Assembly (NCBI GenBank): GCA_964017045.1
Contig: OZ024808.1
Span: 13,935,284 to 13,999,283 of the forward strand
Source: Omphiscola glabra
Lineage: Eukaryota > Mollusca > Gastropoda > Lymnaeidae
Length of the DNA: 64,000 bases
Direction of reading: 5' to 3'
The first letter of the stretch is position 1; every line of letters starts with the position of its first letter. Positions 18,701 to 61,920 of the stretch are shown here, in pieces. The notes under the pieces were generated by a model. That model saw only the letters and a list, made by a program, of their open reading frames with translations. It ran no database searches and had not been told where the DNA came from. Position numbers and translations under genes: made by a program.

Positions 18701-18801
18701 TTGCTCGATGTCACCGTGTTGCCATCACCAATTGCTTTCTGGTGGACTGAAAGGATACACGGGATGCCAATGAGCAGCCATCGGAAGTGTGGAGACTGCA
18801 T
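15707..18801 (-). CDS. Toll-like receptor, single exon, one 1-base frameshift
   Basis: The minus-strand gene begins at 18801 with a signal peptide (MQSPHFRWLLIGIPCILS), then a Cys cluster (CLPCVCT) and many LRRs, and reads open to 16588. A second overlapping frame (about 16600-15707) continues with the last LRR, LRRCT (NPLPCSC), transmembrane helix (VLISVFSSITFCIVLALALTY) and a TIR domain (FDAYILHTDE, box 2-like FNFLPDT, box 3-like FW). Comparison with the intact paralogue at 26.9 kb shows one base missing in the T-run at 16593-16596; otherwise about 1030 aa would result. TIR domains signal through adaptors such as MyD88. In box 2 the usual Pro-Gly is Pro-Asp. Recent pseudogene or assembly error; the rest looks under constraint. 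Confidence 0.88.
16593..16596 (-). other. Frameshift site in minus-strand TLR
   Basis: After ...FSHMK the frame runs into TGA within two codons, whereas the neighbouring frame continues with NLRIIDFSQNSITW, matching DLKLIDFSRNSITW of the paralogue. The run of four T here (four A on the coding strand) is one base too short. Confidence 0.85.
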
Positions 18802-19499
18802 GTCTTTTATGTGGAGATAAACGAATCATGCAAGTCATTTTAGACGATAATGTATTGCCTTAGATTTTGTTTTAGAAAACTTAAATAGTATTACAATAAT
18901 TTTTTACATTGTATACAAAGTCAACAAATACAAGCAAAAGTGTTTGTTTTTGTAATGTGAACTTTATTGCTGCCAAACACACTTAAAACTTTCCATGTCC
19001 CCCTTCAAGGGTCAACAACCCATGAGTAGCTTTGAATCTAATTAAAGGGAGGTAATTTTATTTTTCATGTTTGTCTATTACGAGGGTCGCGTAGCCACTT
19101 ATGTCTGTATTGATATTTACAAAACGTATCTTGTCAATCACACGAATAAATGGCAAACATTTGATATATTGTTGAGAGCTGGCTTAACAATTATTTTCTG
19201 GCTTAAACCAATTATAATACCCATTTCCAAGCTTAAACCAATTATTTCTCTTTCCTGGTTTAAACTAGAAGGTTGGCGTTTCGGCACCGCTAATATCTTC
19301 CCATTTTTAAAAGCCGAGACTATCGACATTGCTATTCGGGTTGATGTTAAGCTAAAGCCCCATAGCGACATTTCAACGTTTTAATATTTACAGGACAATA
19401 CATTTGTAACAAAACTAGAAGCCATTTATTGTTTAAATTGGAACGAATATTAAAATAGTATTCCGCACGTGCTTAAAAAAAATAACACTGAACATGTAT
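18802..19499. other. Upstream flank of the minus-strand TLR
   Basis: AT-rich. Around 19200-19260 the words GCTTAAACCAATTAT recur two to three times. No promoter motif could be assigned and no gene was seen. Confidence 0.35.
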
Positions 19500-24794: not shown

Positions 24795-25350
24795 CAGATC
24801 TTACAGCGCCCATATAAAGAGCACGGGGTGTGCTCGCAGATGCACCCCAGTTGGTACTGGCGAGCTTCTTGACAATGTATAACTTTCTAGAGGCTGCCTG
24901 GGCTGCTTTGGGTCGAGGGTAGTCCCAAGATATTTCGGGTTGTCACACTTCTGCAGGGCACAGCCCCGATAACTAAGGCGTATTGGTACCTCTTTGATAA
25001 TTCTGCCAAGGTAAACAGCGTGTATACGGTCTTTGCAGTGTTCACAGTCAGTTTCCATTTACTCGCATAGTGACTGATCGCATCGAGGTCTGTCTGTACG
25101 GACTCCTGTAGGTCCTAAGGCATTCTTTCCAGTTCTCCAAAGAGCACAATCGTCCGCGAACAGTGATTTTTCACTTCTCATGATCCCGGGGAGATCATTG
25201 ATATAAACTAGAAACAGTACGCAGCTGAGTGCTGAGCCTTGTGGTAGGCCCTGTTCCACAGGATGGTATCTGGACAGAGCAGTACCAAATCTGGTTCTAT
25301 TGACCCTGTTCGTCAGTAAGTCCTTGATCCACAAATACATGTTTCCAGTT
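24795..25350 (-). mobile_element. Jockey-like LINE relic
   Basis: The minus strand encodes RT motifs: WIKDLLTNRVNRTRFG, QGLPQGSALSCVLF followed by LVYINDLP, and the catalytic FADDCALWRTG, then after a frameshift near 25120 VQTDLDAISHYASKWKLTVN and finally KKLASTNWGASAS near 24850. Truncated at both ends and frameshifted. Family assignment rests on motif style only. Confidence 0.75.
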
Positions 25351-25545
25351 ATACCCGGGTACCAGAAGTGACAGGTTGGGATTAAAAAAGTATTTAAAAT
25401 ATTATTGTTGGGTTTGTAAGACAAAATGAGGTATCAATTGAAAGATGATTGAATGGACTATACTTTTGTAAACCTAATTCTTCAGTTTAACTAAAATAAA
25501 CTACTACAAATGACATCCGAATAGCATTGAGTCTAATTGGACCCA
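25350..25545 (+). repeat. Dispersed repeat family A, copy 2
   Basis: Matches 9364-9575 over its full length, beginning at ACCCGGGTACC and ending near CATCCGAATAGCATTGAG. It abuts the truncated LINE at 24795-25350. Confidence 0.7.
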
Positions 25546-26403: not shown

Positions 26404-26880
26404 GTTTAAATCAACAAAAGTTCAGCTTCTGGCCATGTTGTTGAGATCGATGTCATTCAAGGAATAACATTTAAGAAGTCTTGTCTGACAATCACAAATT
26501 ATAAATATCTAGGTAGATAGGTATGTTGGTAGGTAGGTAGGTAGATAGGTGGGTGGGAAGGTAGGTAGGGGTGTAGGTATGGATGAATGGGTGGATGGCA
26601 TAACTCTCTGTTCAATAGCGCGATTTATATATATCTATCCATCCATCCAAAGTAGCATGGATACCAGGGCTATAGAAGTATCCTATCTATCTATCTATCT
26701 ATCCTCCATCCATCCGTTTATCTTTCTTTCTCCCCTTGTATTTATTCCTCTTCCACCACTTGCTCACACATTCCCGCACTCATGTCAATCAAGACGTATT
26801 AAATAACTGTTTTAGTTAAATCATTTCTACTTGACTTTACTGTGATCATCATTTCTCTCTATATCATCAGATTACCAGAA
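26404..26880. other. 5' flank of the plus-strand TLR with tetranucleotide repeats
   Basis: A (GGTA)-like tract at about 26520-26600 and a complementary (ATCT/ATCC) tract at about 26635-26720 could form a hairpin. A pyrimidine-rich CTCTCTATATCATCAG just before the start codon resembles a 3' splice site, so a 5'-UTR intron is possible. Confidence 0.45.
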
Positions 26881-29800
26881 ATGCCCTCCTTCCGTTTACA
26901 ATTGGTTTCCTTGGCCGTATTGATGGTTCTACTAGTGGATCGGGAAAGCACAGTTTTTGGAAATACAATTCCCAATCCATGGCCACCGAACGACGCCTCA
27001 ACATTAGAGCATTCCATCGATAATCCCGTGAGAGTTGAAGCTGCGTATGTCACACTACCATCCACATATAAGACGTCCTACCAAGATGTATTTGATAAGG
27101 AAAATAACACGCACGATAGCAATTACACCTTTGTGTACCCTGACAATAATTATAAATGTCCACCCTGTGTTTGTACCGACAGAAGTGATGGACTTTTAAC
27201 AGCTTCGTGTAAAAGGCTGAACATCTCTGAGGTTCCTCACAATCTAACCACTGGTACAGAAATACTAATAATTACTGAATGTTCTATTGGTGCTTTGGAT
27301 ATGAGCGAATTTAAGCTGTATAGATATCTAAATAGCGTGGTCATTTCTAATAACACAGTGTTGCATACAATACGAAGATCGTCGGGATCCAAATCCACTT
27401 TGGCTATTCTCACATTATTCGTCGGCAAAAATGGCATTGAAATGGTTGAAAGTTATAGTTTTATAGACATGGAGCGCCTTCAAACCCTGTCACTGAGTGA
27501 GAACCGCTTAAACAAACTGACGGAAAACATGTTTTCAGGACTTAAAAGTCTTAGGAAGTTAGATGTTTCCCGTAATAACATTCACTTCGTTGATAACAAG
27601 ACATTCGACGATTTAAAAAGTTTACTCATTCTCGATATCAGCGGCAATCTACTGCAGGTAAACAATCACCAACTTCTGCCTCCCGGTGCATTTCTGAACA
27701 TCAACCAATTAGAAGAACTTTATATTCAAGGCAATTGTGAGCACGATCTCTTGTTATGTAGCTTTCCACAGCTGGTGATACAACAGTTGAAAAGATTAAG
27801 AGTTCTTGCCATCGACGCACACAACGAAAACGGCATAGGACCAGAAAGTGCAGCACTTTTCAACCTACGCACGTTGATTATTGATTCAAATTCGTTTTGC
27901 ACCACCCGAATTATAAACGAGACGTTCTTTGACCAAACTCCCAACTTAGTATCTTTAACAATACAAAATTGTCCGTTGCTAAGTATTCACCCCAAAGCGT
28001 ATTCGAAGCTTTTACACTTAGAGAATCTAACGGTCGGTTCAGTGCCCCCCGATTACAATCTCTGCCTAGCTTTAAGCGACATCCAAGGTTTACAGAATGC
28101 TTCTCTTAAGTATGTCTCACTTTCGGGTGTAAATAAATATGATTGCGCCTGTAGAAAACTTAATGATGTGAGCGTTAAATATTTAATGAGCCTAGACTTG
28201 CTCGAACTTGATCTTTCGTGGAATAACATTATGTCCATTTATCCGGGTTTTGCGTGGAATTTGCCAAAGAGCTTAAGAAAGCTTGATCTGAGTGGAAATG
28301 ACTTATCTACTGGCGTGCTCTATAGACCATTAAAATTTCCAGATGAACTTACGGAGCTAAATCTAAGCTATGAAACATATCAGTACACGAGCCAATGTTC
28401 AGAAACGTATATAGAAGCAGATGACAACAGTCTAATCGATGTGAACAGCGTTTTCAATATGGTTGGTTCCTCTAAAAAGGAACATGTCTACAAACAGAGC
28501 TACTTATTAACTAACACTTCCAATGAAGCAAGGGAATTACAGAGAAATGACAAACAAGTGCAAATTGAAGGTTTTCAAATTGTTAATCCGGCTTATTTCC
28601 ACTTCCCAACTACTGTAAAAATTTGGCATGCCACACAATTCCCGCAATTTGGAATTTTAGTTCTAAGACGAATTTATGAACAAAATTCTTCGCTTATTGA
28701 AATTAATTTTTCCGGAGGTTTCTTTGAGACGTGGGGGACATCCCACATGCTGTCTAAAATAAAAATAGCAGATTTAAGCAATAATTTCTGTGGAGACATG
28801 AGTACGAAATTTCTGACTAAAAACAACAGTTTAGAACATTTGTCTGTATCTAACAATTACATGGGAAATGTCTTCTACAACGATTCACAGGGTTTGTTAT
28901 TTGCAAAAGCCAAGAGACTTAGGTACTTAGACATCTCAAAGAATCTCATCAATGAAATACCAAAGAAATTTTTCAAAGGTTTAGTCAAACTTCAAACGTT
29001 GAAAGCTACCGATAATAAGTTACAACAGATACATAGCAGTTTCTCTCATATGAAGGACCTGAAATTGATTGACTTCAGTAGAAACTCTATCACTTGGATG
29101 AGTAGGAACACACGTGACGACCTTGACCTTATTGCCATCGATCACGAAGTGTACTTGGATCTGACTTCCAACCCTCTGCCCTGCACGTGTAGTGGAATAG
29201 AGATGCTGCAGTGGCTTGCCACCACCAATGTTTTTCTTTTGAACAGAGATTTTCTTGTGTGCGTCAATGAAACGAATGCAATACAAGAAATTGGAGATGT
29301 CGCTGAGATGGTTCGAATTTTAAAACGACAGTGCACTTCTAAAAATGCCTTGATAGTAACCTGTGTATTTGCCATTAGTTCTTTCAGTATCGTGTTGACT
29401 GCTTCAATGATGTATCGATACCGCTGGTGGTTGAGATATTTACTGAATGTGGCTCTGGCTAAATTGTTTGGTAAAAAGTCTGCAGATAATACAAATACTT
29501 TCCAATTCGATGCTTATATTTTAAGCACAGATGAGACTCGATTTTTTGTACTTCGTGATTGTGTCCGCGAACTAGAAGAGCGAAGAGGTCACCGACTTTG
29601 CATTGAGGAGAGAGATTTTTTACCTGGTACTTACATGCCGACTGATATTTTGAGTGGCATACGGAACAGTGCCGCGACCGTTGCTATGGTAACGCCAGAG
29701 TTTTACGAAGATGGCTACTCCGAATACCGTATCAAGATGGCGTTGATGGAGGAATGTTCGGCAAAGCGGACTCTACTTTACGTGTGCATGTGCGAACCTA

Positions 29801-29946
29801 CACGTGATGAAGATTTATCCGACGATCTCATGACTTTGATGAAAAACAATCGCTACATCGAACGCCCGCCACTCGACGAAACTGTTGATAATGTAGGCAG
29901 AGCATACTGGGATCAGCTGTCTCTTTTCATAGGGCGATCTGTTTGA
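26881..29946 (+). CDS. Toll-like receptor, intact, single coding exon
   Basis: 1021 aa from the first ATG (MPSFRLQLVSLAVLMVLLV signal peptide). A Cys cluster at about residues 92-115 (CPPCVCT) is followed by about 20 LRRs, an LRRCT (NPLPCTC, about 762-820), one transmembrane helix (about 824-846) and a TIR domain from about 874 to the C-terminus (box 1 FDAYILSTDE, box 2 RDFLPG, box 3-like YW instead of FW). A single LRRCT cluster next to the membrane makes it a vertebrate-type single-cysteine-cluster TLR. Expected role: ligand sensing by the LRR ectodomain and TIR-adaptor signalling in innate immunity. It is the head-to-head paralogue of the gene at 15.7-18.8 kb. An upstream in-frame GTG (26842) is not used as a start here. 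Confidence 0.95.
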   Translation: MPSFRLQLVSLAVLMVLLVDRESTVFGNTIPNPWPPNDASTLEHSIDNPVRVEAAYVTLPSTYKTSYQDVFDKENNTHDSNYTFVYPDNNYKCPPCVCTDRSDGLLTASCKRLNISEVPHNLTTGTEILIITECSIGALDMSEFKLYRYLNSVVISNNTVLHTIRRSSGSKSTLAILTLFVGKNGIEMVESYSFIDMERLQTLSLSENRLNKLTENMFSGLKSLRKLDVSRNNIHFVDNKTFDDLKSLLILDISGNLLQVNNHQLLPPGAFLNINQLEELYIQGNCEHDLLLCSFPQLVIQQLKRLRVLAIDAHNENGIGPESAALFNLRTLIIDSNSFCTTRIINETFFDQTPNLVSLTIQNCPLLSIHPKAYSKLLHLENLTVGSVPPDYNLCLALSDIQGLQNASLKYVSLSGVNKYDCACRKLNDVSVKYLMSLDLLELDLSWNNIMSIYPGFAWNLPKSLRKLDLSGNDLSTGVLYRPLKFPDELTELNLSYETYQYTSQCSETYIEADDNSLIDVNSVFNMVGSSKKEHVYKQSYLLTNTSNEARELQRNDKQVQIEGFQIVNPAYFHFPTTVKIWHATQFPQFGILVLRRIYEQNSSLIEINFSGGFFETWGTSHMLSKIKIADLSNNFCGDMSTKFLTKNNSLEHLSVSNNYMGNVFYNDSQGLLFAKAKRLRYLDISKNLINEIPKKFFKGLVKLQTLKATDNKLQQIHSSFSHMKDLKLIDFSRNSITWMSRNTRDDLDLIAIDHEVYLDLTSNPLPCTCSGIEMLQWLATTNVFLLNRDFLVCVNETNAIQEIGDVAEMVRILKRQCTSKNALIVTCVFAISSFSIVLTASMMYRYRWWLRYLLNVALAKLFGKKSADNTNTFQFDAYILSTDETRFFVLRDCVRELEERRGHRLCIEERDFLPGTYMPTDILSGIRNSAATVAMVTPEFYEDGYSEYRIKMALMEECSAKRTLLYVCMCEPTRDEDLSDDLMTLMKNNRYIERPPLDETVDNVGRAYWDQLSLFIGRSV

Positions 29947-31689: not shown

Positions 31690-34600
31690 ACACTATCGAG
31701 AGCAGCCTTGATGCCAAGAATAGGGAGATATGGAAGCTTCTTATCTGGATAGATTTGATATTTGATATGTATGGCATCTTTCCGTCTACGAGAGACGATA
31801 GATTATCTTGTCTGGTTGCAGCTCTTCGTGTGGCTAATGAGACCGATCCTTGAATGGCAGTCTCTTGTGCATGTCCCGCACACGAATGCGGTGGAGTAGT
31901 GTTTTCTTGCCTTTCTCCGCGCTCTCTTCACAGCTGCTTCCGCCCTGTAGAGCTCCTCGGCACGTAGTGATCCTTCCTTCACGATGCCCCGCCATGTAGA
32001 TCGATCCTCCGCCAGGTCCTCCCAATTTGAGATGTTGATGTTAGCCGCCTTCATATCTCTTTTGCAAATGTCTATGTATCTGAGACGAGGCCGTCCAACT
32101 GACCTTTTCCCTGTCGCCAGCTCGCTGTACAGCACGTCCTTAGGTATGCGACCAGGTTGCATTCGCTTGACGTGCCCAAGCCAGCGGAGGCGTCTTTGGA
32201 TTAAAAGGGCTGGGACGCTGCACATATTTGTTTGAGACAGGACATCCGTCTTGGGGACTTTTTCCTGCCATTTGATGTCAAGGATGCGGCGCAGGCATCT
32301 GAGGTGGAAGCCATTGAGCCTTTTTTCGTGCCTGTTGTATGTGGTCCAAGACTCACAACCATAGAGGAGTGTGCTCAGTACGCAGGCCTGGTATACCTGC
32401 AGCTTAGTTCTTGTTGTGAGCTTGGCATTGGACCAGACTCTTTTCTTCAGTCTCGCCATGACAGTTGCGGCCTTCCCTATTCTACCACTTATCTCATCCT
32501 CCATTGAGAGGGTGCTCGAAATGTTCGACCCTAGATATGTGAATCTGTCAACAGCATCCAAGTCGCAGTCGTCGATGGAGATAGTGGGGGGAGAGTCAGC
32601 GTCCTGGGCCATAATGTTGGTTTTCTTTAAGCTGATGATCATGCCAAACTCTTTGCAGGCAGCGGATAAACTGGATACAAGGCTCTGCAGGCCGTCTGCT
32701 GAGTGAGATACTAAAGCGGCGTCATCTGCAAATAAGAGCTCACGTAGCATGACCTTTCTTATTTTGGTCTTAGCTCTAAGGCGCGCAATGTTTAACAATC
32801 TCCCGTCTGCTATAGTGTGAATGTATACCCCATCGCTGTTGTTCTTGAAGGCATACTGGAGTAAGATGGAGAAGAAGATTGCAAATAAAGTAGGAGCTAG
32901 CACGCAGCCTTGCTTTACTCCACTACTTACTGGAAAAGCTTCTGAGGTGGCACCGTCATAGCATACTGTGCCCTGCATGTTATAGTGGAACTGCTCGATG
33001 ATGTTAAGCAGACGTGCAGGGCAGCCTATTTTTTTTAGGATCTGGAAGAGGCCGCTTCTGCTGACAAGATCAAAAGCTTTAGTGAGGTCGACAAACGCTA
33101 TGTATAGAGGCATATGTTGTTCCCTGCATTTCTCCTGCAACTGACGCAGAGAGAAGATCATGTCTATGGTTGACCTACCGGCTCGAAAGCCACATTTCGA
33201 TTATGGGAGTACACGCGATGCTAGGGTCTGCAAGCGTGTTAATGCAACTCGGGCGAAGGCCTTTCCAACTATGCTAAGAAGGAAGATTCCACGATAGTTG
33301 TTGCAGTCACTCTTGTCTCCTTTGTTCTTGTACAATGTAACAATGTTTGCATCTTTCAACTCTTGTGGTAGCTGTCTCTGTTCCCAGCACATAGTAAGGA
33401 GATCGTGCAAGGGCCGTAATAGAACTTCCTTTCCACATTTTAGAACCTCTGGTGGAATTCCATCATTGCCAGGGGCTTTCCCACAGGCGAGACAATCGAT
33501 GGCTCTACCTACCTCTTCTAGGGTGGGTAGGGTGTCAAGCTCATCCATGACCGGCAGGTCTGGGATATCGTCCAGGGCAGCGGTTGAGACATGGTTCATT
33601 GTTGCGTATAGTTCCAAGTAGTGCTCAATCCACCGTTTGAGTTGTTTATCCCGATCAGTAATAAGTTCCCCTGTTTTTGACATTAAGGGCGCAGTCTTGG
33701 AGGTCAGAGGCTTGTTTTATATTCTCGTACATAGCCTTTGCATCTCCTCTATCAGCAGCTGACTGTATGCTGGAGCTTAGATTGAGCCAATATGTGTTAG
33801 CGTAGTGGCGAGCTGCCTGCTGGGTGTTTTTCTTGGCACTTTTAAGAGTTTGTAGAGTGGCTGGGCAAGGCGTGTCTTTATAAGCCAAGAGAGCCTTTCT
33901 TTTAGCATCAGTGACATGCTTCATTTCCTGCCAGTGAGCCTCGAACCAATCTGCACTTTTGCGTTCTCTCTTGCCAAATGCCGTGATAGCCGAGTTATAG
34001 ATAGTGTCCCGCAGATGAGACCACTTGGACTCAATAGTGTCTTTTGGTGGCATTTGTTCAAGAGCTTCTTGTAGTCTATGGGTGTATTCTTCCGTTCTCT
34101 CTGGGTTATTGGTGGAGTAGGTGCTTATGCGAGGTTTGCCCTTGTTTTTGGTGTGATACAGTTTCTTTGGCAGTAACCTTATCTTGCTAGCCACTAAGGA
34201 ATGATCTGTGTCGCAGTCTGCGCTATGGTAGCTGCGTGTGAGGAGGACACTAGCCAGTTGTGTGCGTCTTGTGATTATGAGATCTAATTGGTGCCAGTGT
34301 TGCGAGCGGGGATGCCTCCATGACACTTGGTGAATAGCCTTACAGTTGAAGTAGGTATTTGTTACACATAGTCTATGTAAACTGCATAGTTCCAGTAGCC
34401 TCTGCCCATTTTCATTTAGCCTGCCTCTTCCGAAATGACCAAGGCATGTAGGTCAGGACATGTAATCACTTCCCACTCTCGCATTAAAGTCACCCAAGAG
34501 GTAAATTGCTTCTGAGCTGGAGGAAAGTGTTGGAGCATAAGCACTGGTGATGTTGGCAAATCCAGAAGACGTTGACAGACGTATAGTAAGTATTCTATTT

Positions 34601-35270
34601 GTGCCCTTTGTTGGGGGTTCTATGGATGAGCAGAATACGTTTTTTATAGCAAAACCAATCCCATGTTGTCTTGGTGCGTCCATTGGTCCACCCTGCCAGA
34701 AGAAAGTGTAGTTGTGTTCTTTTATGGTACCACATTCCGGGAGCCTGGTCTCCTGGAGGCACGCAATATCAATGTTTAGTCTGCTAAGCTCTCTATCAAT
34801 GATAGCTGTTTTCCTTGCGTCGTCAATGAGCTGCAGGTCGGCAGTAATGCCCGGACACATAGTCCTTACGTTCCAGCTTGCTAGTCGAAGAGCTGATGTC
34901 TTCTTTTCTTTTGTTTTCTTATTTCTAGATGCATGTTTCTGTGGCCTACTTGTTGAGATGACCCTCTGATCTCCACGCACCCAATGAAGATAAAGCCTGG
35001 GCGAAGTAGTATGGAGAACCAGCTGCTGCCCAACCAGCAGATTCCCCCTCTCCACGCCCTTGGTGGATCCAAGGGATCGAGTAGTGTCGATACGGCTTGG
35101 CACCATTGGCGTCGCAGGAGCTGCCGGAATGCTAATGACTTTAAAAACAGACCGCCTAAGGAGCTCCAATTCCTGATTTTCTGTCGGGGTTTACTCCCTT
35201 AGCCTTTCCCATCTGGGTATATCCACAAGGCAGCGGAGGTTTGGAGTCAGAGTTTCCCTCTCCTAGATGA
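31690..35270 (-). mobile_element. Nearly full-length APE-type LINE, inactivated
   Basis: One minus-strand frame is spread over four pieces. Near the start is an APE endonuclease (LASWNVRTMC, ACLQETRLPE, LLGDFNARVGSD); then a linker; then the RT (CGFRAGRSTIDMIFSLRQL, AFVDLTKAFD, SSGVKQGCVLAPTLF, LLFADDAALV) and a C-terminal block (LRWLGHVKRM, VGRPRLRYID) with a Cys-His knuckle (CGTCTRDCHSRIGLISH). Defects: an in-frame TGA after GSDYMS (near 34453), a frameshift near 33700, and TAA just before SKCGFRAG (33201). The rest is well preserved, so the insertion is fairly young. Clade not assigned. Confidence 0.9.
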
Positions 35271-41200: not shown

Positions 41201-44200
41201 ACAATAAAATGGCACAGACAATAAAATGGCACAGACAATAAAATATCACAGACAATAAAATGGCACAGACAATAAAATGGCACAGACAATAAAATATCAC
41301 AGACAATAAAATGGCACAGACAATAAAATGGCACAGACAATAAAAGAACATGAGAATGAAAATATATCAGACAATAAAATATCTCAGACAATAAAATATC
41401 TCAGACAATAAAATAACACAAGAAATAAAATAACACAGACAATAAATAACACATTTTAAAATTTAGTGTCTAATTTGAATAGAACAAAAACGTGTTTTTG
41501 TGTGTGGGTGGAGAAGAATATTGTATAATGTTGTTGTTTTTTAATTGATCTTTAGTGTTAGTATGTAACTGTCTCATTATTTCAGTATTTGTATGTACCT
41601 GTCTTTTATGTTTGTATTTGTATGTAACTGTTTTACTATGTTAGTAATTATAAGTGACTGTTTCACGATGTTAGTATTTGTATGTAAATTTCTCACCATG
41701 TCCATGTCGCAAAGCTCGTTAGTCTGTGGTTACTATGATTTAATGAACATGCAAACATGCATATTAAAATATGCAAATGAATAACTCAACCGACTCACCC
41801 ATTATCAACGAGACCATTTACTTAACTAGGCTCCCAAATGCTTGAGTTACAACTACTTCGTAATTTACTAACACGCCTCCCCAAGGCTTACAACACAGGT
41901 CGCCTAACAAACACATTCCTTTAAAATAATTCTTGGTTGAATCGTAAAGTTTTTGTTTTTGTTATCTAACAGCTTCTGAAACTCAAGTTTCAGCCAGTGG
42001 TATTCCTAAGCTTGCAGAATTCAGCCAGTGGTATTCCTAAGCTTGCAGAATTCAGCCCGTGGTATTCCTAGGCTTGCAGAATTCAGCCAGTGGTATTCCT
42101 AAGCTTGCAGAATTCAGCCAATGGTGTTCCTAAGCTTGCAGGATTCAGCCAATGGTATTCCTAAGCTTGCAGGATTCAGCCAATGGTATTCCTAAGCTTG
42201 CAGAATTTAGCCAATGTTATTCCTAAGCTTGCAGAATTCAGCCAATGTTATTCCTAAGCTTGCAGAATTCAGCCAATGGTATTCCTAAGCTTGCAGGATT
42301 CAGCCAATGGTATTCCTAAGCTTGTAGGATTCAGCCAATGGTATTCCTAAGCTTGCAGAATTTAGCCAATGTTATTCCTAAGCTTGCAGAATTCAGCCAA
42401 TGTTATTCCTAAGCTTGCAGAATTCAGCCAATGGTATTCCTAAGCTTGCAGGATTCAGCCAATGGTATTCCTAAGCTTGTAGGATTCAGCCAATGGTATT
42501 CCTAAGCTTGTAGGATTCAGCCAATGGTATTCTTAAGCTTGCAGAATTCAGCCAATGGTATTCCTAAGCTTGTAGGATTCAGCCAATGGTATTCTTAAGC
42601 TTGCAGAATTCAGCCAATGTTATTCCTAAGCTTGCACGATTCAGACCTGACGTTTCTTATTTTTTAATGGGGTTATCAAAAAAGGAAATACACACTACCT
42701 CAATGGCTCTATAATACCATGACAGTTAAGCCCGGATTATCTATTTTCGACATAAACTAAAATTCGTTAATTGATTTTATAATTTATACGTTTATATTGG
42801 TAACTTTTTTTAGATTATTTGATATTGATGACACATAAAGTATAATCATTTGAAATTGGTGTCACTGACAACAAGATATTCAGTCGATTCGAATAGCTGA
42901 ACACGGTATCAAACATATATCCAAACACATCGTGGGCCTTGGTAAATTCTACACAACTTGAGGACCCAATTGTATCATTTTGTTTATTATATTTATTTTA
43001 TTTATTCATTTTTTTTTTCAAAATTAATTTTTGCTGTCGTTTCACATTTGCAGTAGTACTTCATCATGTTCTAGTCGTTCTTGCAACGTGATTTTGTACT
43101 AGACATTCTGAAAACATGGTCTTGTTCTAGTCATTCTGACAAATTTTGATATTTAACTATACTTGTTCGTGATCCACCACATAGCACCACGTTTACTATG
43201 CAAATTATCAACCACAACAGATTGTTCTGTCAACTGCCGGGTGGCAAATGTGACAATGTCACTGGCGCGTGCTTCAAGGGATGTAAACCGACATTCTCAG
43301 GACCGATGTGTGACATAAGTGAGTGGTCCTTTTCTGTGTTGTGGTATTGTATCTCTTAATGAGGCAGATGTGTGACATCAGTGAGTGGTTCATTTCTCTG
43401 CTGTGGTCGTGTATCTCTTAATCCTGGAGGGGGTACGTGCTGCAAAGGGAAAAAAATATTTTTTGATTGTTATTAAAGTAAATTCAATTATTTTTAAATA
43501 AGGTTAGGCAGAGTTACGAACATTTTAGACAAGGGTACACATAAGTCAAAAGTTAGGGAAACACTGGTTTAGAGGAAGATATGAAAGGGAAGCAACCTTC
43601 TCTTATATATATTACGCTTCTGGTGTGACTCGTGGACTACTTCCTAACAACATGACTGCTTTCTAATCAGCGACTTTGGAATTGAGAGTAATTACAAATA
43701 ATTCTAAATGTTTGAAAGAAAGTATGGTTTAATAATGAGTTCAATATCGCGCAAAATATAATTATAACTACGCTAAATGATATATTTTTTATATAACGCA
43801 ACTGCGTTTGGCGCGTAATATTGTCTTTTCGGAAAATAAATCGTCTCAATTTAAGTATGTGTAAAAAATATTCAGTTTAAAAGTGGTTGAGACATCAAAA
43901 TATTTAATATAGATCATGGGCGTGAAATAAAAAATGTGCAGTGACGTATCATTGGGAAATGGGTGTAACAAAAATTTGGATTCTTAAATGTGTGTTACTT
44001 GAGTTCATGTTTTGTCAAGTAACTTTAGGAGATGGAAAGTTCACACATTGCTGACGCCAATGTTTGGAAGGCTATATCTAGTTTTAAATATTCAATTAGT
44101 TTTTCAGCTTTCTCCCCTTTAAAAATATTTTTTTTAAATTCTTCTTTTTTTTTACTTACAGAATGCAGCAACTGTGCGGGTGCTGGATCATGTGATCACC

Positions 44201-46382
44201 AGCGGCGTTGTACGTACGGTTGCGTAGAAGGTTTTGAAGGAGATACTTGCTCAAACGGTGCGTTAACCCGACCTTAATCGATCAGGGTGTAGTTCCCTTT
44301 AAACTTCAGTTCATTAATGATTATTCCTTAATTCTGTTTTTTTTTTAATCTTCTTCTTTCTCTATGCTTTCAGGGCCCACGATCAATGCATTGATCATTA
44401 TGGCTCCTATGGTTCTGAGGGGTTCGCGATGTTAATGTGCTTGATTTTCAAGAGGATAATTCACTGGTTGCAAGGCAGGAGGCAAGAGCCGCAAATGTGT
44501 CAGGTGTAGTCGCCGCAACTGTTGCTTTTGGAAGCTTGTTCCATTCCTTTATTGTCTTTGGAAGGAATGAGGAGCTCATTGTACTGAGTTCTTGTTTTTA
44601 AAAGTCGAAACCGTTTGTCGTGACCTCTTCGCTGTCTTGGGGGGAGATTGACGAGTTTCTGTTTGATACTGGAGCAGTGGACCAGCCCATTATTGATCTT
44701 GTACAACATGGAGAGCCTAGATAGTCGTCGTCGTTCTTCTAACGGTGACCACCCTAAAGTTTCCAGCATGCTGCCAACACTAGAGGTGTTTCTGTAGCGG
44801 TTCATGACAAAGCGTGCTGCCCGTCGTCGGAGCGCCTCCAACCTATCGATGCTCTTCTGGGAAAATGGGTCCCAGACTGAGGATGCGTACTCTAACAGCG
44901 GCCGGACAAAGGCTTTATAGGCTTTTTCTTTCACGCTTGAGTTGCAAATCTTCAGATTTCGTCTTACGAACCCCAGGGTCTTGTTTGCCCGATTGCACAC
45001 ATTGCAAATGTGCTCGTCCCAGTGGACTTCTCTTTGGACGGTAACACCTAGGTACTTTACGGAGGAAACTGGCTCTAGAATATGGCCATGCAATTCGTAA
45101 GGGTGGTGTAGAGGGGATCTGCTTCTGGAGACTGACAGTGTCTGGCACTTGACGGGATGAAATTCCATGTCCCAGGTCATCTCCCACTCGGCTAACCGAT
45201 TGAGGTCCTGTTGCAGCTGGTCCTGGTCAGAACTGTTGGTGATCGTTCTATAAACCGCCGTGTCATCTGCGAAATCATTGGGCAAAATGAGGCGGGTGAA
45301 AAAGTTTAATGAATCTTGTTTCTTTTTTGTATTCCGTTTCTACAAAAATGAGGATTTCCAAACCTTTGGGGTGTGGCACCGGGATAGCTTCGATGATACT
45401 CATTCTTGTGCAATAACTGGGGATACAGGTATAAGGATATGTTCTCCCCGGCTTGTAGTGCATGTTATTAACCCGTCGGAGTGAGAAACTAAACGCAGGA
45501 TTAATCGATCAACGATACCAACAATGAGACGGGCGCAGAGCTGCGCTAATTCTATTGTGTTTTACGAGGCATAAAGATGAGGAAGCTGAAGAAATGCGCT
45601 CATTTCTAATTCCATCAAGCAAATTATCAGATAAATATATGCAAATTTGTAAATGTCATGAAAAATGTTGGAAAATGTCATGAAAAATGTTGGTGTTTTT
45701 TAACATGTAAAATGCAGCTTCATACACTGTTGTACGGCAGGGGTTCTTTAAGTCTCGGCATGGACACCAAAATTTGGGTTTGGACATGCCCATAACGCCG
45801 GAATTTGAGTTCCCCTGCCCGACAAGCTGTTGTATGAAACTCTCACGTCTTAGAAACCGCATTGATTTATTAGACACCGTACAGCATTGGTGATACAGAC
45901 GGCTCTTGCTCACCCTTCTTTTGTCCCTTCCGTTTATTCAGTTATGCAACTTACAACTTATTGCTGTCTTGAGGCCCATACCGTTCATATTACAAGCCCG
46001 ATTAATTGAATACAAATTTACAATATTTTTGAAAAAATAATAATTAGCTGATTCTTAAGTTAATTAATCATTTTTTAAAAAAAACAAACACGCAAACCGT
46101 TGATTATATTATAGTTGAATTTACAATACTGATATTTTGGATGCAAACTCAAAAAAAAAAAAAGATGTATTACCTGTGATTGTATTATAATATTTTGCTT
46201 TCGGTACTAGATAATTACTTTTTTTTCTACTGTTCTTTCTTCTAGCACCTAAAATGCCAGGATGGTTTTTCTGGCAAATGTTTAGCTTTTTCATCCTGAC
46301 CCTGGCGATTGTTGCGGTTGTGCTGTTTGTTAAGAAATCTCTGGAGCAGCCTGTTAAAGAAGGAATCCATCAATACGGATAG
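38257..46382 (+). CDS. Small EGF-module membrane protein, 5 exons, one 1-base frameshift
   Basis: Exons: 38257-38347 (signal peptide MDDPVIRSMFLLLFSLG...), 40000-40101, 43221-43318, 44162-44257 and 46246-46382. All junctions are GT-AG and phase 1. Exons 2-4 each code one Cys-rich module of about 33 residues (e.g. CTHGCQDGWTGHNC, CTYGCVEGFEGDTC), as in MEGF/scavenger-receptor-F type EGF repeats. The last exon gives a transmembrane helix (FSFFILTLAIVAVVLFV) and a tail ending HQYG. About 174 aa. Exon 3 is 98 nt where the symmetric pattern needs 99: one base is missing near 43238 (NC-GGKCDNVTG), so as given the frame breaks; pseudogene or assembly error. Likely a cell-surface adhesion or recognition protein. 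A missed exon in the long introns is possible. Confidence 0.75.
38465..38659. mobile_element. SPIN-like hAT MITE, copy 2
   Basis: Begins CAGTGGTTCTCAACCTGTGG followed by GTCGCGACCCC and ends GGCTGAGAACCACTG; these terminal and subterminal blocks agree closely with SPIN hAT elements. Flanking 8-mers CTGTAAAA and CAGTAAAA agree at 7 of 8. It lies in intron 1 of the EGF-module gene. 195 bp, no coding capacity. Confidence 0.85.
39700..39950. repeat. 13-bp minisatellite
   Basis: About 19 imperfect copies of TTTCTCATGATTG in intron 1 of the EGF-module gene, ending shortly before the exon 2 acceptor. Confidence 0.85.
40233..40445. repeat. 24-bp minisatellite
   Basis: About eight copies of GTGATGTTAGTGCACCCCAC plus GATT in intron 2 of the EGF-module gene. 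Confidence 0.88.
40900..41450. repeat. 17-bp minisatellite
   Basis: About 30 copies of ACAATAAAATGGCACAG with a TATCACAG variant, in intron 2 of the EGF-module gene. Open minus-strand frames here are repeat artefacts. Confidence 0.92.
41550..41705. repeat. About 31-bp short tandem repeat
   Basis: Four to five imperfect copies around TTAGTATTTGTATGTAACTG in the same intron. Confidence 0.7.
41990..42645. repeat. 30-bp minisatellite
   Basis: About 21 copies of TTCAGCCAATGGTATTCCTA plus AGCTTGCAGA in intron 2 of the EGF-module gene. Variants (AATGTTATT, GCAGGATT, GTAGGATT) recur in blocks, which points to duplication of multi-unit segments. Confidence 0.92.
43312..43435 (+). repeat. Two-copy duplication of exon 3 end and its 5' splice donor
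   Basis: GATGTGTGACATAA|GTGAGTGG at the end of exon 3 (donor 43319) is repeated 62 bases on as GATGTGTGACATCA|GTGAGTGG (donor 43381), and similarity continues through GTATCTCTTAAT. Using the second donor would read an in-frame TAA. Confidence 0.85.
44340..45290 (-). mobile_element. CR1-like LINE, 5'-truncated, in intron 4 of the EGF-module gene
   Basis: The minus strand holds one uninterrupted frame (about 260 codons, 45285-44500) from the catalytic FADDTAVYRTI through SSVKYLGVTVQ, RPLLEYASSVWDP and ALRRRAARFV to SMLETLGWSPLEERR, the C-terminal half of a CR1/jockey-type RT. The 3' UTR continues to about 44371 and ends in the same GGGCCC and AGAAGAAG tail seen at 13490. The long open frame implies a recent insertion. 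Confidence 0.85.
45291..46245. other. Rest of intron 4
   Basis: AT-rich. A short CAGGGGTTCTTTAA...GAGTTCCCCTG segment near 45737-45814 looks like hAT ends but has no matching target duplication. Confidence 0.35.
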
Positions 46383-47050
46383 TTTAAAATACAATTATTT
46401 TTGTAGAGACACGTGACTCACGGTTAGGAGATATAAGACCGAAGTCAGAAATGTAAACAATGATCCTTATGCGTGTGCCCTGTGGGAGCTTACATAGATG
46501 TGTTGTGTGGGTGTTGTGAGTGGGGTGTGGGGGGGGGGGTTGGGAATGGTTTATGACGGGGGTTGTGATCGGAAAATGGTATGTCTTTAGGTTTGAAGAG
46601 ATGTTTGAATGTGTAAAAATGAAGTATTCAATCGTTACGCTATTAGCTTGAGGCGTAGTCTCTTCAAACTAAGATTGTTTCAGCCAACAATTACCTGGCA
46701 CTCTGTGTTAAATTTATTTATATCTATTAGTGGCCGCTTTAGTTACTTACTCGCCACTTTACTGACTTACTGAAACCATTACTGACTTACTGACCGGTTA
46801 ACTGACTTACTGACCACTTTACTCGCGATCTATTGAAAAATATCAATCATTCTGATTGTGTAACTGTTTTATGAAAGGACCGGGCTAAATTACAAAATTC
46901 TAGACCCTTATTTTGCTATGTAGGTGGACATTCTAGTTTTAACTTTTAAATGTATACTATTTTATGTATTATTTATTTTCGGGAATATATATGGAATAGT
47001 AGGCCTGCTACATTTGATGACTTTGCGATGTTGGTTTTTTATATTTTTTT
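46383..47050. other. 3' flank of the EGF-module gene
   Basis: AT-rich with a G run near 46535 and short TGACTTACTGACC repeats near 46750-46820. No gene seen. Confidence 0.4.
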
Positions 47051-54235: not shown

Positions 54236-55881
54236 TCACACGTAACGCTCTGTTTTATAATCTACGAAATTAACATATTTTCATCATCTGTTCCTATAAC
54301 GCATCTAAAAATAGCACGCGTTTTTTTGTTTCCTTAAAACGTGCTTTAGGGCAAGATCTTTGAAAATTCCATTGTTATATAATATGATAAATTTGAAAAA
54401 TTAACTCGATTGTTTATATGATGTTATAATGCCCTCATCTTAAGGATCACTTGAGGACCCCATTTTTTTTTTGAATCATATTTTAATTTAATTGATTAAC
54501 GACCATAGCAATTGATGAATACCTTTTCTTTTTTAAAGCCATCTTTTCAAAGTTAGACTTGTCTTTAAATCATGTTTCTTGTCTGTGTACAGCTTTAAGA
54601 TCAACTAAAATCGCATTATAAATTTGTCTTTGTTATTGGAGAATGTTTTAGAAATTTAACTGGTACTTATGGGAATAAATAACTTTTGACTGGGCGCTAA
54701 ATTTACGTCTATAAGATTGCGCAGTAAATCAATTTTTTTGTTTCTAATACAAATCCAAGTAACCCGGGTATATCGCCTAGTGTTAACATAAAAATTAAGA
54801 ATATCGTAAACAAACAAAAAATCCTCAAAAATAAAAGCTGTCTTGTTGCTTTTCACTGTTACATTCATTAAACGTTACTTATAAACATTTTTTTTTACAG
54901 AAAATCTGTTAAACTCAAACAGTAACCTCAAAAGTTGTTGTAGAGAACTCGTGGTCAGGCAGAGACGACTGCAGTCATTAATTTTATTCAGGAATATGAA
55001 TGTAGCATATATATCTATTAACGAGTGATGTCGCTGTTTCTCGATGCATTGTGGAGACTATCACAGCTCAGCATAATTCAAATTGACATTGATTCTTCTT
55101 TTTCCCATGTCAGTTTTGTCATTGCCAGTGACGCTTATCTAAATAAAGACCTCGTACTTGGGCTGTTTTAAATGTGTGGGAAAAAGTCAGCTGACTGTTA
55201 CGTAATGTTGTGAAATTATTTGGAACTACACACTAATCAAGTTTTAGGATACCTTTTTTTCTTTTTGAAAACTTTTAGTGTGATACTCTTTTGGTAAGCT
55301 CATTGTAACAGAACTATGTATAAATTAGATTAATTTTATTGATTTAAAACATATCCTTTGGTAAATTAAGCGATTTAGATTGCAAAGTTGCTGTGTTTTT
55401 GTGTGTGTTTCTTGTTGTTTGTGTAGTCCCTTTAATTATTTCGTGATCTTTTTTAATATTCTTTAAGAGTCTTATCTATAATCTATAGAGTTGTACCCCC
55501 AGCTCCCCTACGCTTCGCCTCTGCATTTTTATGAGAATAACAATTTATACGATATGACAAGCGTTAAAAAAATTTGATAAGTACACATTTTTTTAAAACT
55601 AAGAATATGTTTTTTGTACCACTTTCCGAAAACACAGTTAAATCAGCATGCATCATTTTCACGAGGTTGCCATCATCTTGAAATATGATCACGTTTTAGA
55701 CACGAAAATCGGGATGTTATTTTATAACGCAGAGGAAGAAAGCACGTTAAATCAATGAAATATGAGAACGCATGGCTTGATAAAAAGGACAGTAACACCT
55801 TACTAGGAATATACAAAGTTAAAGTGCTTTCGTTTCTTTCCAGACCCCCGCCCCGCGGGAAACCACGGAGACACGACAACG
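54236..55881. other. 5' flank of the secreted LRR gene
   Basis: AT-rich. No convincing TATA box or upstream exon was found; TCTTTCCAG near 55844 could be the acceptor of a 5'-UTR intron. Confidence 0.35.
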
Positions 55882-58800
55882 ATGAGAGGACTGTATTCTA
55901 TACGTGTGTACGTTTTAAATGGTCTGTTGGCGATGATTGCCTCACAGAGCTGCCTACCAAAAGTAAGTGATCAAACCAAAGTAAGTGATCAAACCAAAGT
56001 AAGTGATCAAACCAAAGTAGGTGATCAAACCAAAGTAAGTGATCAAACCAAAGTAAGTGATCAAACCAAAGTAAGTGATCAAACCAAAGTAGGTGATCAA
56101 ACCAAAGTAAGTGATCAAACCAAAGTAAGTGATCAAACCAAAGTAAGTGATCAAACCAAAGTAAGTGATCAAACCAAAGTAGGTGATCAAACCAAAGTAA
56201 GTGATCAAACCAAAGTAAGTGATCAAACCAAAGTAAGTGATCAAACCAAAGTAAGTGATCAAACCAAAGTAGGTGATCAAACCAAAGTAGGTGATCAAAC
56301 CAAAGTAAGTGATCAAACCAAAGTAAGTGATCAAACCAAAGTAAGTGATCAAACCAAAGTAGGTGATCAAACCAAAGTAGGTGATCAAACCAAAGTAAGT
56401 GATCAAACCAAAGTAAGTGATCAAACCAAAGTAAGTGATCAAACCAAAGTAAGTGATCAAACCAAAGTAAGTGATCAAACCAATGTAGGTGATCAAACCA
56501 AAGTAGGTGATCAAACCAAAGTAAGTGATCAAACCAAAGTAAGTGATCAAACCAAAGTAGGTGATCAAACCAAAGTAAGTGATCAAACCAAAGTAAGTGA
56601 TCAAACCAAAGTAAGTGATCAAACCAAAGTAAGTGATCAAACCAAAGTAGGTGATCAAACCAAAGTAGGTGATCAAACCAAAGTAGGTGATCAAACCAAA
56701 GTAGGTGATCAAACCAAAGTAGGTGATCAAACCAAAGTAAGTGATCAAACCAAAGTAAGTGATCAAACCAAAGTAAGTGATCAAACCAAAGTAAGTGATC
56801 AAACCAAAGTAAGTGATCAAACCAAAGTAGGTGATCAAACCAAAGTAAGTGATCAAACCAAAGTAAGTGATCAAACCAAAGTAAGTGATCAAACCAAAGT
56901 AAGTGATCAAACCAAAGTAAGTGATCAAACCAAAGTAGGTGATCAAACCAAAGTAAGTGATCAAACCAAAGTAAGTGATCAAACCAAAGTAAGTGATCAA
57001 ACCAAAGTAAGTGATCAAACCAAAGTAAGTGATCAAACCAAAGTAGGTGATCAAACCAAAGTAAGTGATCAAACCAAAGTAAGTGATCAAACCAAAGTAA
57101 GTGATCAAACCAAAGTAAGTGATCAAACCAAAGTAAGTGATCAAACCGATGGGCGTTACGGTCGAGCTGTTATTTTATTTTGTTAAAGAAATGTTTTAGT
57201 TCTTTGATAAAGTGGTACAAGACTCATTCTTCAGCGTAAAGCTATCGCAACCGACTCCCCCGCTATCAAAGGTGAGGGAAGGCCGTACGCTAATTTGACC
57301 TGTTATCCATATTTTTGCTAAGGAATTCTTTCTTGTTAAGGCAGACAAGTGCTCTGAAATATCAAATACAGATGTAGGTCTAAATATCAGTTAAGTTTTG
57401 TCCAAACATCCCTTCTACACTTTCCCTCTGAACCTCACCCCCCCCCCCCATTTTTTCATTATAAAACCTCCTCTACCTGCTCTCTATCCATCCACTAAAG
57501 TTATATATACTCTCACTTTGATCTCCAAAAACTCAATTCATCAAAATTTTCTCAGTTATTCTTCACTGCCTACTTCACTGCCTACTTCACTGCCTACTTC
57601 ACTGCCTACTTCACTGCCTACTTCACTGCCTACTTCACTGCCTACTTCACTGCCTACTTCACTGCCTACTTCACTGCCTACTTCACTGCCTACTTCACTG
57701 CCTACTTCACTGCCTACTTCACTGCCTACTTCACTGCCTACTTCACTGCCTACTTCACTGCCTACTTCACTGCCTACTTCACTGCCTACTTCACTGCCTA
57801 CTTCACTGCCTACTTCACTGCCTACTTCACTGCCTACTTCACTGCCTACTTCACTGCCTATAACTTCTTTCAAGAAAAGTGATCGCTTTTGATACGTAAT
57901 ATAAATTGCGCTCTTTCATTAATTTTTTATAAATTGAATCAAGATTTGGCTTTGCTTATATAACTTATAATAATAATAATGGATATTTGTAATATATATA
58001 TATATAATTTTATATATCATTGATTAATCTTCAAATATTTTACAGGAGTGTGGTTTCGATGTGATGAACGGACAGTCTATACATTGTACGGGTGGAAACT
58101 TTTCAACATTTCCGGACCTATCTAAGTGCAGCGGCCCAATCTATTGGATCACTCTTACCGTAAGAGTCTTACTGCACAATGTATCAACTACCACTTTGCT
58201 ACAAACTGACTTCAAAAGACCAAAGACTCAGTCAGAGACTTTCCATTAATTCCACACTCAAATGACTATGTGGAATGTAATCAAAAACAATAAATGTTCA
58301 TTAATTGTGATTTATCATCTCATCTTATCTCATCCTGTCTCATCTTATCTCATCTTACCTCATCGTATCTCATCTTATTTCACCCTTTTTATATAAAACT
58401 ACATGTTACATTTCTTCACACGAATCAACAAGAAATTTAATGTATGTATCTTTCATAGCATACATTCAATTTCTATCCTCTAGACAGTGAACAAATTAAG
58501 GCATAAATGGTACTGTTTTGTTTTTTTTAAACAACAAAAACTATGTTCGCTGTTTGGTTTGGTTTATACAAAATGAATCGTTATTGTTAAAAAGTACATT
58601 ACAATTTTGTCATTAATCAAACAAAGGGATTTTTTCCATTAATAATTTTTTTTTTTATTTCAGAGAACCTCCATCTCTAACCTGACCGACAATAGCGTAC
58701 CACACCGACTGCTCTATCTCAGCTTCAACGACAACCCACTGACTTCCGTTGCCGACGGCGCTTTCGACAACTGCGGGAGCACACTGACCGCCTTGACCTT

Positions 58801-59605
58801 AGACGGCTCCCTCAACGGCACGATCCCGAATGCACTTGAAAGGCTGACGGCACTGACCATTCTCAAGATCTCCAATCAAGACATCAATGATTGGAACGTT
58901 CCGGTGCTACGAAAACTCGGAACGCACGTTCAAGACCTTACGCTGTCGAGCGTGTCCCTATCTGCATGGCCGGGCTGGCTGAAGCATTTCACCGAGCTGA
59001 ACGCTCTAGAAATAAACAATATGACATCCCCGACTATCCCGGACGATGGTCTGCTGCAGGTCACTAGCAAACTTATCACACTGACCATTTCACAGCATAA
59101 CTTTACGGAAATCCCCAAAGCCGTCACGGATCTGTTGGCCGTGAAATTTCTTAATTTACCCGATGGAAAAATAAAGGAAATAAAAGGATTACCGCCCCAG
59201 GTCGAAGGTCTGAGTTTGGAGAACAACCTGATCGAAAAAGTAGATGACGGTGCCTTTAGATCACTTGGCGACCTGGAGTCGCTTCACTTGGACTATAATC
59301 CTCTTGTAAGCATCTCCGAAAACGCGTTCGTCAACTCGTCGGTGATTTCATACTTGACCTTACAGGCAACGAACTTAACACGTGTCCCGTTGGCATTTTT
59401 GCACATGCCCCACATGATGTTCCTCAGGATGGAGGACAACGCTGATCTCGTGTGCACGTGCGACGAGTCTGCTCTCGCGGCATGGTTTGAGAACCTGCCG
59501 TACATGTCCTTCATCGGAGACTGCGGCGTCATAGGAATACGGACTTTTTTTACAGCGCTAGCGAAAGATTGTCCAAAAAAAAAAAAACTTTTTTTGACAA
59601 TTTGA
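55882..59605 (+). CDS. Secreted leucine-rich repeat protein, 3 exons
   Basis: Exon 1 55882-55962 (signal peptide [20 protein letters not shown]..., ends ...CLPK), exon 2 58046-58159 (Cys pair and PDLSKC segment), exon 3 58664-59605. All junctions are phase 0 with TTTTACAG and TTTATTTCAG acceptors. The shortest splice form is 378 aa: signal, Cys-rich cap, about 8 LRRs (e.g. [20 protein letters not shown]) and a C-terminal cap with [12 protein letters not shown]. No transmembrane helix, so secreted. The style (C...[15 protein letters not shown]) recalls the LRR non-catalytic subunit of oplophorus luciferase as annotated in invertebrates; role unknown. Intron 1 starts with 66 tandem donors (see repeat). 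The 13-A run at 59575-59587 makes the last few residues uncertain. Confidence 0.85.
55963..57148 (+). repeat. 18-bp minisatellite of 66 tandem 5' splice donors in frame
   Basis: 66 units of GTAAGTGATCAAACCAAA; 48 units have GTAAGT and 18 have GTAGGT. The first unit starts exactly at the exon 1 donor. Each unit reads as one hexapeptide V(S/G)DQTK in the exon 1 frame, with no stop until 57186. Because 18 is a multiple of 3 and each GT falls on a codon boundary, every donor is phase 0 and compatible with the phase 0 acceptor at 58045. The last part is three identical 108-bp higher-order units (five GTAAGT, one GTAGGT) at 56737-57060. Confidence 0.93.
57561..57860. repeat. 12-bp minisatellite, 25 copies
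   Basis: Perfect copies of CTTCACTGCCTA, pyrimidine-rich on the plus strand, within intron 1 of the secreted LRR gene, 185 bases before its acceptor. Open frames (SLPT repeats and the complement) are artefacts. Confidence 0.95.
58316..58385. repeat. Short TCTCATCTTA repeat
   Basis: About seven copies of ATCTCATCTT variants in intron 2 of the LRR gene. Confidence 0.75.
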
Positions 59606-61485: not shown

Positions 61486-61920
61486 AGCGTAACCCAGACC
61501 GTCGTACTCGTTGTGGGCCAGTCGGAGGTCCACTGTGTGGAGTTTATCCAGACCGTCGTACTCGTTGTGGGCCAGTCGGAGGTCCACTGTGTGGAGCTTA
61601 TCCATGGGCCGTTGGTTATGGCTTGCAGAAGATAGTCCCATATGATCTAATGGTTACTACCGTGACCTGGAACTCCGTACTCGTTGTCGGCCAGTCGGAG
61701 GTCCACTGTGTGGAGTTATCACAAACCGTCGTACTCGTTGTGGGTCAGTCGGAGGTCCACTGTGTGGAGCTTATCCATGGGCATTTGGTTATGGCTTGCA
61801 GAAGATAGTCCCATATGATCTAATGGTTACTACCGTGACCTGGACCTCCGTACTCGTTGTGTGCTAGTCGGGGGTCCACTGTGTGGAGCTAGTCCATGGG
61901 CCGTTGGTTATAGCTTGCAT
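61486..61920. repeat. Complex tandem repeat with two periods
   Basis: The block GTACTCGTTGTGGGCCAGTC plus GGAGGTCCACTGTGTGGAG occurs five times at spacing about 53-120 bp, alternating with a TTATCCATGGGC...GCTTGCAGAAGATAGTCCCA block. It continues after the retroposed insertion at 62644. Confidence 0.8.

What the first reader, a model, noticed from the sequence alone, without database searches (positions are those of the whole stretch)
55882..58159. 66 in-frame 5' splice donors: a splicing ladder that could set protein length
Seen: intron 1 of the secreted LRR gene opens with 66 units of 18 bp, each with a donor (48 GTAAGT, 18 GTAGGT) preceded by AAA. All donors fall on codon boundaries in the exon 1 frame, the array has no stop, and the next exon begins in phase 0. 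Established: U1 snRNA pairs best with AG|GTAAGT; competing donors are chosen by strength and position. Inference: any donor can be used without breaking the protein, giving 0-65 V(S/G)DQTK hexapeptides between the signal peptide and the LRR domain. That would be a single-gene generator of length-variant secreted proteins, with alleles differing further by repeat number. I know of no described system of this form.
Basis: partly seen in the sequence, partly recalled or inferred. Interest (0 to 1): 0.92.

Follow-up and report, generated by a model that had tools for sequence, protein, structure and literature searches.

The report
Snail intron starting with 66 donors
In a pond-snail relative, the start of one gene's intron has been copied 66 times in a row, so every copy carries a usable-looking splice signal in the right reading frame; this is probably a repeat-expansion accident that leaves the normal protein intact, but it could let one gene make proteins of many lengths and would be an unusually clean natural test of how cells choose splice sites.

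Summary
An 18-bp minisatellite (55960-57147, 66 units) sits on the exon 1/intron 1 junction of a leucine-rich-repeat gene: 48 GTAAGT and 18 GTAGGT, all in phase 0, no stop (65 units begin AAA, one AAT). All 66 donor choices give an open 378-768 aa protein. The closest relative found, a Lymnaea stagnalis protein (91% identical), joins exon 1 to exon 2 with no hexapeptide: the first-donor product. The window is very probably lymnaeid and the short form is the conserved one. "In frame" is one coincidence, not 66: given an array on a phase-0 donor, an open ladder is expected 27-38% of the time, and tandem arrays cover 11% of this window. My weak tests found no sign of coding selection. Donor usage is unknown: no RNA data were reachable. 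"No described system" is too strong: the human CBS 31-bp VNTR also spans an exon-intron junction. Best reading: a junction minisatellite with mainly early-donor splicing. A real ladder is not excluded (about 25%).

The parts
55882..55962 (+). Exon 1 (coding part): ATG, likely signal peptide and the first N-cap cysteine, ...SQSCLPK
   Evidence: Aligns to residues 1-27 of L. stagnalis P0001, 81% identical over 27 residues; low-confidence model helix 4-22
55844..55962 (+). Possible full exon 1 after an acceptor-like TTTCTTTCCAG ending at 55843: 119 nt if the first donor is used, 1289 nt if the last
   Evidence: 81% pyrimidine tract, as for the exon 3 acceptor; inferred, no RNA support
55960..57147 (+). 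66-copy 18-bp minisatellite; each unit holds the last exon codon AAA plus the first 15 nt of the intron, with a 5' splice donor
55963..58045 (+). Intron 1 (2083 nt) if the first donor is used
57561..57860 (+). Second minisatellite in intron 1: CTTCACTGCCTA x 25, 100% matches
58046..58159 (+). Exon 2, 114 nt, phase 0-0 (skippable in frame), N-cap of the LRR domain
58664..59605 (+). Exon 3: LRR domain and C-cap, stop
   Evidence: Pfam LRR_8 E 7.4e-19; P0001 match 92% over 58664-59578

Best explanation
This is a young minisatellite that expanded from the exon 1/intron 1 junction of a secreted LRR gene in a lymnaeid snail. The duplicated unit is the last codon of exon 1 (AAA) plus the first 15 nt of the intron, so each copy carries the donor with it. 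Splicing mainly uses the first donor or donors, giving the conserved 378-aa protein. Later donors are chosen at a lower, still unknown rate. Products that keep repeats are open reading frames, so they would escape nonsense decay, but they lengthen the exon and keep intact donor motifs in the mRNA, which may hold them in the nucleus. Shown: anatomy, frame, near-equal donor strength, a zero-repeat product in a relative. Inferred: origin by tandem duplication, early-donor bias, filtering.
For: Zero-hexapeptide junction in the L. stagnalis relative, with its match blocks meeting these exon borders to within one residue. Minisatellite-rich DNA: 36 non-overlapping arrays, 11.4% of the window. The array is homogenised: two variant sites in 66 units. 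No sign of coding constraint, though the tests are weak: 5 of 7 arrays with at least 10 copies (4 of the 6 others) have 0% indels; 16 of 34 minisatellites have a period divisible by 3; the unit's Ser and Val codons are uncommon in this gene (AGT 1 of 32, GTA 3 of 20), while GAT 8 of 23, ACC 9 of 30 and AAA 13 of 17 are ordinary and CAA is 2 of 8. With the upstream acceptor-like site the exon is 119 nt for the first donor and 1289 nt for the last. Retained 5' splice motifs inhibit export and promote decay (abstract of PMC4380460), and retention needs m6A (abstracts of PMC11629677); each unit has one DRACH site, AAACC.
Against: The first donor is no stronger and no more accessible (0.102 against an array mean of 0.100) than the others. 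Under classic 5' splice site competition (recalled, not read) high U1 occupancy favours the intron-proximal, that is the last, site; SRSF1 favours intron-proximal sites in DOK7. Whether L. stagnalis carries the array is unknown, so its gene model may say nothing about this allele. The export work is in human cells and its abstract names motifs in the 3' terminal exon or in unspliced mRNA, whereas here they would lie in an upstream exon of a spliced mRNA.
Confidence: 0.6

Rival explanations
1. A true splicing ladder: many donors are used at comparable rates, so one gene makes a length series of secreted proteins with 0-65 V(S/G)DQTK hexapeptides near the mature N-terminus, further varied by allele copy number.
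For: 66 of 66 isoforms open. All donors nearly equal in U1 pairing (-6.4 or -6.1) and on average more accessible than 400 random GT sites (0.100 against 0.063) or 24 other GTRAGT sites (0.049). The insert point lies outside the folded core, just before the first cap strand at residue 29 (model of P0001, mean pLDDT 89.3).
Against: No RNA or peptide evidence. The one close relative has zero repeats. The insert separates the first two cysteines of the N-cap (CLPK|EC). The in-frame property alone has a 27-38% chance.
Confidence: 0.25
2. The repeat is coding and the last donors dominate, giving a long form with about 65 hexapeptides, as expected if U1 fills all donors and the intron-proximal one wins.
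For: Frame open through the whole array; the last unit's donor is as strong as the first; intron-proximal preference under high U1 occupancy (recalled).
Against: No related repeat protein found; AGT and GTA uncommon in this gene; a 1289-nt exon if it is internal; 65 donor motifs retained in the mRNA.
Confidence: 0.07
3. The array acts at the RNA level, as a cluster of U1 sites that retains or degrades the transcript (or long isoforms) and so tunes output by repeat number.
For: 66 donors and 66 DRACH sites in the array; 5' splice motifs and m6A cause nuclear retention in human cells (abstracts).
Against: No AATAAA, ATTAAA or AGTAAA in intron 1 for U1 to suppress, only three TATAAA, all downstream of the array. 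When the first donor is used the array leaves with the intron. One DRACH per unit is not very surprising: 0.36 per 18 nt elsewhere in the window.
Confidence: 0.08

Closest known systems
Human CBS 31-bp VNTR, c.1444_1467+7(16_21)
   Same: Tandem repeat whose unit spans an exon-intron junction (its notation runs from exonic c.1444 to intronic +7), so each copy should carry the donor (my inference); copy number varies, 16 to 21 (PMC2630376 passages).
   Different: 31 bp is not a multiple of 3 and there are 16-21 copies; here 18 bp, in frame, stop-free, 66 copies. The passages seen do not discuss splicing of this VNTR, and the paper on it (Lievers 2001) was not held.
MIR137HG VNTR
   Same: A VNTR that its authors link to alternative splicing with novel 5' splice donors (PMC6692358: title, start of abstract, two passages).
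   Different: Non-coding host RNA with two novel donors reported; not a donor per repeat in a reading frame.
DOK7 intron 4 competing 5' splice sites
   Same: Two donors 11 nt apart competing for U1, chosen by strength, position and SRSF1 (PMC5585400: start of abstract and passages).
   Different: Two sites, the intron-distal one frame-shifting; not a repeat array.

Membership tests
Exon-junction VNTR (CBS type) | Tandem unit spans the exon-intron boundary | tested here: met
   Array starts at 55960, exon 1 ends at 55962; unit = AAA + 15 intron nt
Exon-junction VNTR (CBS type) | Each unit carries a donor | tested here: met
   66 of 66 with GTA(A/G)GT
Exon-junction VNTR (CBS type) | Copy number varies between individuals | not testable with these tools
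   One sequence only; the genome search gave no answer in ten tries
Exon-junction VNTR (CBS type) | More than one of the repeated donors is used in RNA | not testable with these tools
   No RNA data reachable
Secreted LRR protein | LRR domain | tested here: met
   LRR_8 67.7 bits, cut-off 27; model pLDDT 89.3; Foldseek in PDB lists Netrin-G ligand-3, Nogo receptor, LGR4, chondroadherin and Lingo-1
Secreted LRR protein | Signal peptide | tested here: inconclusive
   No predictor was run; hydrophobic N-terminus and a low-confidence helix 4-22 only
Fibromodulin / SLRP class II (database name of P0001) | N-terminal cysteine cluster C-x3-C-x-C-x6-C (recalled) | tested here: not met
   Cysteines 24, 29, 41, 55, i.e. 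C-x4-C-x11-C-x13-C

The most novel reading that the evidence does not exclude
A natural in-frame splice-donor ladder: 66 near-identical donors give a graded series of secreted LRR proteins whose N-terminal hexapeptide number is set by where U1 wins, with nuclear retention of donor-rich mRNAs trimming the long end, so that allele length and U1 level together set protein length.
Probability: 0.22. Interest if true: 0.8.

Novelty: new variant of a known kind. Interest (0 to 1): 0.5.

Why it matters
With donors of near-equal sequence (two main classes) at fixed 18-nt spacing and no frame penalty, the position of use would be read out directly from RNA. That makes an open question testable at one natural locus: does splice-donor choice follow order of synthesis, nearness to the acceptor, exon size or random competition? 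It also suggests a genome-wide test: in minisatellite-rich genomes, junction-spanning arrays should recur, and those that survive should favour in-frame periods if downstream donors are really used.

Tried and rejected
Coding repeat: the search with the 434-aa frame scored only the 7995 candidates sharing most words and listed 27 proteins with E up to 1. 24 of the 27 carry PF00132 (a bacterial hexapeptide-transferase domain, as I recall it). I read the other three: P0009, a Sec14-type protein with five KVSD-led hexapeptides; P0008 (Tanacetum), with repeats holding VDQTKVSD; P0013, an LRR protein. I treat all as composition matches. Copies of the array elsewhere: none in viral contigs or genome contigs, but these are viral and prokaryote collections, so this says nothing. 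Poly(A) suppression by U1: no AATAAA, ATTAAA or AGTAAA in intron 1, three TATAAA. Donors hidden by RNA structure: a 210-nt piece with the first units folds more stably than shuffles (z -4.39), but array donors are on average not less accessible than random GT sites; the fourth donor, a GTAGGT, is at 0.010. A paralogue in the window: with this protein and P0001, tblastn at E up to 1 found only its own exons; weak LRR matches to the two TLR-like regions came from the queries P0002 and P0003. The first structure model, from one sequence, was poor (pLDDT 48.6) and was replaced. Passages of PMC8724738 were read but carry no claim here. Literature searches: (open-licence PMC only); no in-frame donor ladder was seen in their listings, which does not show that none exists.

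Its first-to-third cysteine spacing is the same 16 residues as here, so there is no net insert; I dropped it as evidence for the ladder. Codon counts, the 16 of 34 share and the terminal-exon limit of the export paper are now given in full. These changes cut both ways and I left the odds as they were.

Full report
What is there. The array at 55960-57147 has 66 units of AAAGTAAGTGATCAAACC, with 48 GTAAGT, 18 GTAGGT, and one unit starting AAT. It starts with the last codon of exon 1, so the repeated unit is the exon-intron junction itself: 3 exonic and 15 intronic bases. The frame from ATG 55882 runs through the array to a TAA ending at 57186. Intron 1 is 2083 nt from the first donor and ends TTTTACAG; exon 2 (58046-58159) and exon 3 (58664-59605) follow.

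What gene and organism. Exons 2 and 3 encode an LRR protein (LRR_8 E 7.4e-19). The only close relative found is P0001 from Lymnaea stagnalis, 373 aa and 91-92% identical. One search listed 3 proteins from 3265 scored candidates. A profile search (201 hits, 120 listed, 7993 candidates scored) added, next among snails, a second L. stagnalis protein at 40%. The window is therefore very probably from a lymnaeid snail. I could not rule out a paralogue within L. stagnalis, since only one gene was compared. tblastn of P0001 gives three blocks: 55882-55962, 58043-58159 and 58664-59578. They meet the proposed junctions exactly, except that the second starts one codon inside the intron. P0001 reads ...SCLPK-ECSFD..., exon 1 joined to exon 2 with no hexapeptide. 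That is the first-donor product. It is a database gene model whose RNA support I did not see, and whether L. stagnalis has the array is unknown.

How surprising is the frame. Because the period is 18 and the first donor is in phase 0, all later donors are in phase 0 automatically. Taking 1/3 for a period divisible by 3 and 0.81 for no stop in the three free codons gives about 0.27. With the window's own share, 16 of 34 minisatellites, it is about 0.38. The surrounding DNA is rich in such arrays: 54 TRF rows, 36 non-overlapping arrays, 7315 bp or 11.4% of the window. Of seven arrays with at least 10 copies, five (this one included) have 0% indels, so an indel-free array is no mark of coding selection. 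Only two kinds of substitution occur in the array, both changing the amino acid (AGT to GGT, AAA to AAT), too few for a test. In this gene AGT is 1 of 32 Ser codons, GTA 3 of 20 Val and CAA 2 of 8 Gln, while GAT (8 of 23), ACC (9 of 30) and AAA (13 of 17) are ordinary. This hints at an intronic origin but no more.

Can any donor be used. By sequence, yes: all 66 choices keep one open frame, 378 to 768 aa, and skipping exon 2 also keeps the frame in 66 of 66. U1 duplex energy is -6.4 for 48 units and -6.1 for 18, against -4.6 for the gene's intron 2 donor and -14.0 for a full match; of 3675 other plus-strand GT sites, 3.5% are as strong as -6.4. Mean accessibility is 0.100 for the array, 0.063 for 400 random GT sites and 0.049 for 24 other GTRAGT sites; the first donor is not special at 0.102. 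Values within the array range from 0.007 to 0.176. Sequence alone does not single out a donor.

Which donor is likely. Three considerations favour the early donors, none shown here. First, an acceptor-like TTTCTTTCCAG ends at 55843; if real, the exon is 119 nt with the first donor and 1289 nt with the last, and exon definition favours short exons (general knowledge). Second, intact 5' splice motifs left in mRNA inhibit export and promote decay in human cells (abstract of PMC4380460), and this retention depends on m6A (abstracts of PMC11629677). An mRNA using donor k+1 keeps k donors (checked for six values of k), and each unit has one DRACH site, AAACC; DRACH occurs 0.36 times per 18 nt elsewhere, so this is not remarkable in itself. 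The abstract speaks of motifs in the 3' terminal exon or in unspliced mRNA, so the carry-over to an upstream exon is a guess. Third, the zero-repeat product is conserved. Against: competition between equal donors can favour the intron-proximal site when U1 is abundant (recalled; the papers I wanted were not held), and SRSF1 favours the intron-proximal donor in DOK7 (passages of PMC5585400).

Where the insert would sit. A model of P0001 from an 11-row alignment has mean pLDDT 89.3, a low-confidence helix at 4-22, no structure at 23-28 and the first cap strand at 29-31. The L. stagnalis paralogue P0033 reads CIPKVSTEC there. Its second cysteine is displaced by three residues, but the spacing from first to third cysteine is the same 16 residues, so this is not evidence for an insert.

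Comparison. The closest known case is the human CBS VNTR, named c.1444_1467+7(16_21), a 31-bp repeat spanning an exon-intron junction with 16-21 copies (passages of PMC2630376). The present array is the same kind of object with an in-frame, stop-free unit and many more copies; hence a new variant of a known kind.

Noticed in passing
P0033 (L. stagnalis paralogue protein), residues about 25-33: Reads CIPKVSTEC where P0001 and the window read CLPKEC; VS is what a retained GTAAGT would encode, but the overall cysteine spacing is unchanged, so this may be nothing. DNA not available.
   Followed up: partly
46727-46823, minus strand: A 20-bp array of about 5 copies carries GTAAGT four times on the minus strand; no exon identified there.
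   Followed up: partly
41989-42644: A 31-bp array (21 copies) carries TTGCAG 16 times and TTCAG 20 times, acceptor-like motifs; no exon identified there.
   Followed up: partly
57561-57860: Second array in the same intron, CTTCACTGCCTA x 25, 100% matches; the unit holds no AG.
   Followed up: no
window, 34 minisatellites with period of at least 10: 16 of 34 periods are divisible by 3, somewhat above one third; not tested further.
   Followed up: no
61494-61888: 54-bp repeats that on the minus strand, by my own reading and not by a call, look like LRR units; possible LRR gene fragment.
   Followed up: no
26803-29943 (+); 15710-16630 and 16591-18825 (-): Long ORFs with LRR sequence, the minus pair ending in a TIR-like stretch: they look like Toll-like receptor genes (from reading the start of the translations; no family search).
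   Followed up: no
31806-35190 (-), 44503-45339 (-) and 25062-25433 (-): Open stretches resembling endonuclease and reverse transcriptase of non-LTR retrotransposons (from reading the translations).
   Followed up: no
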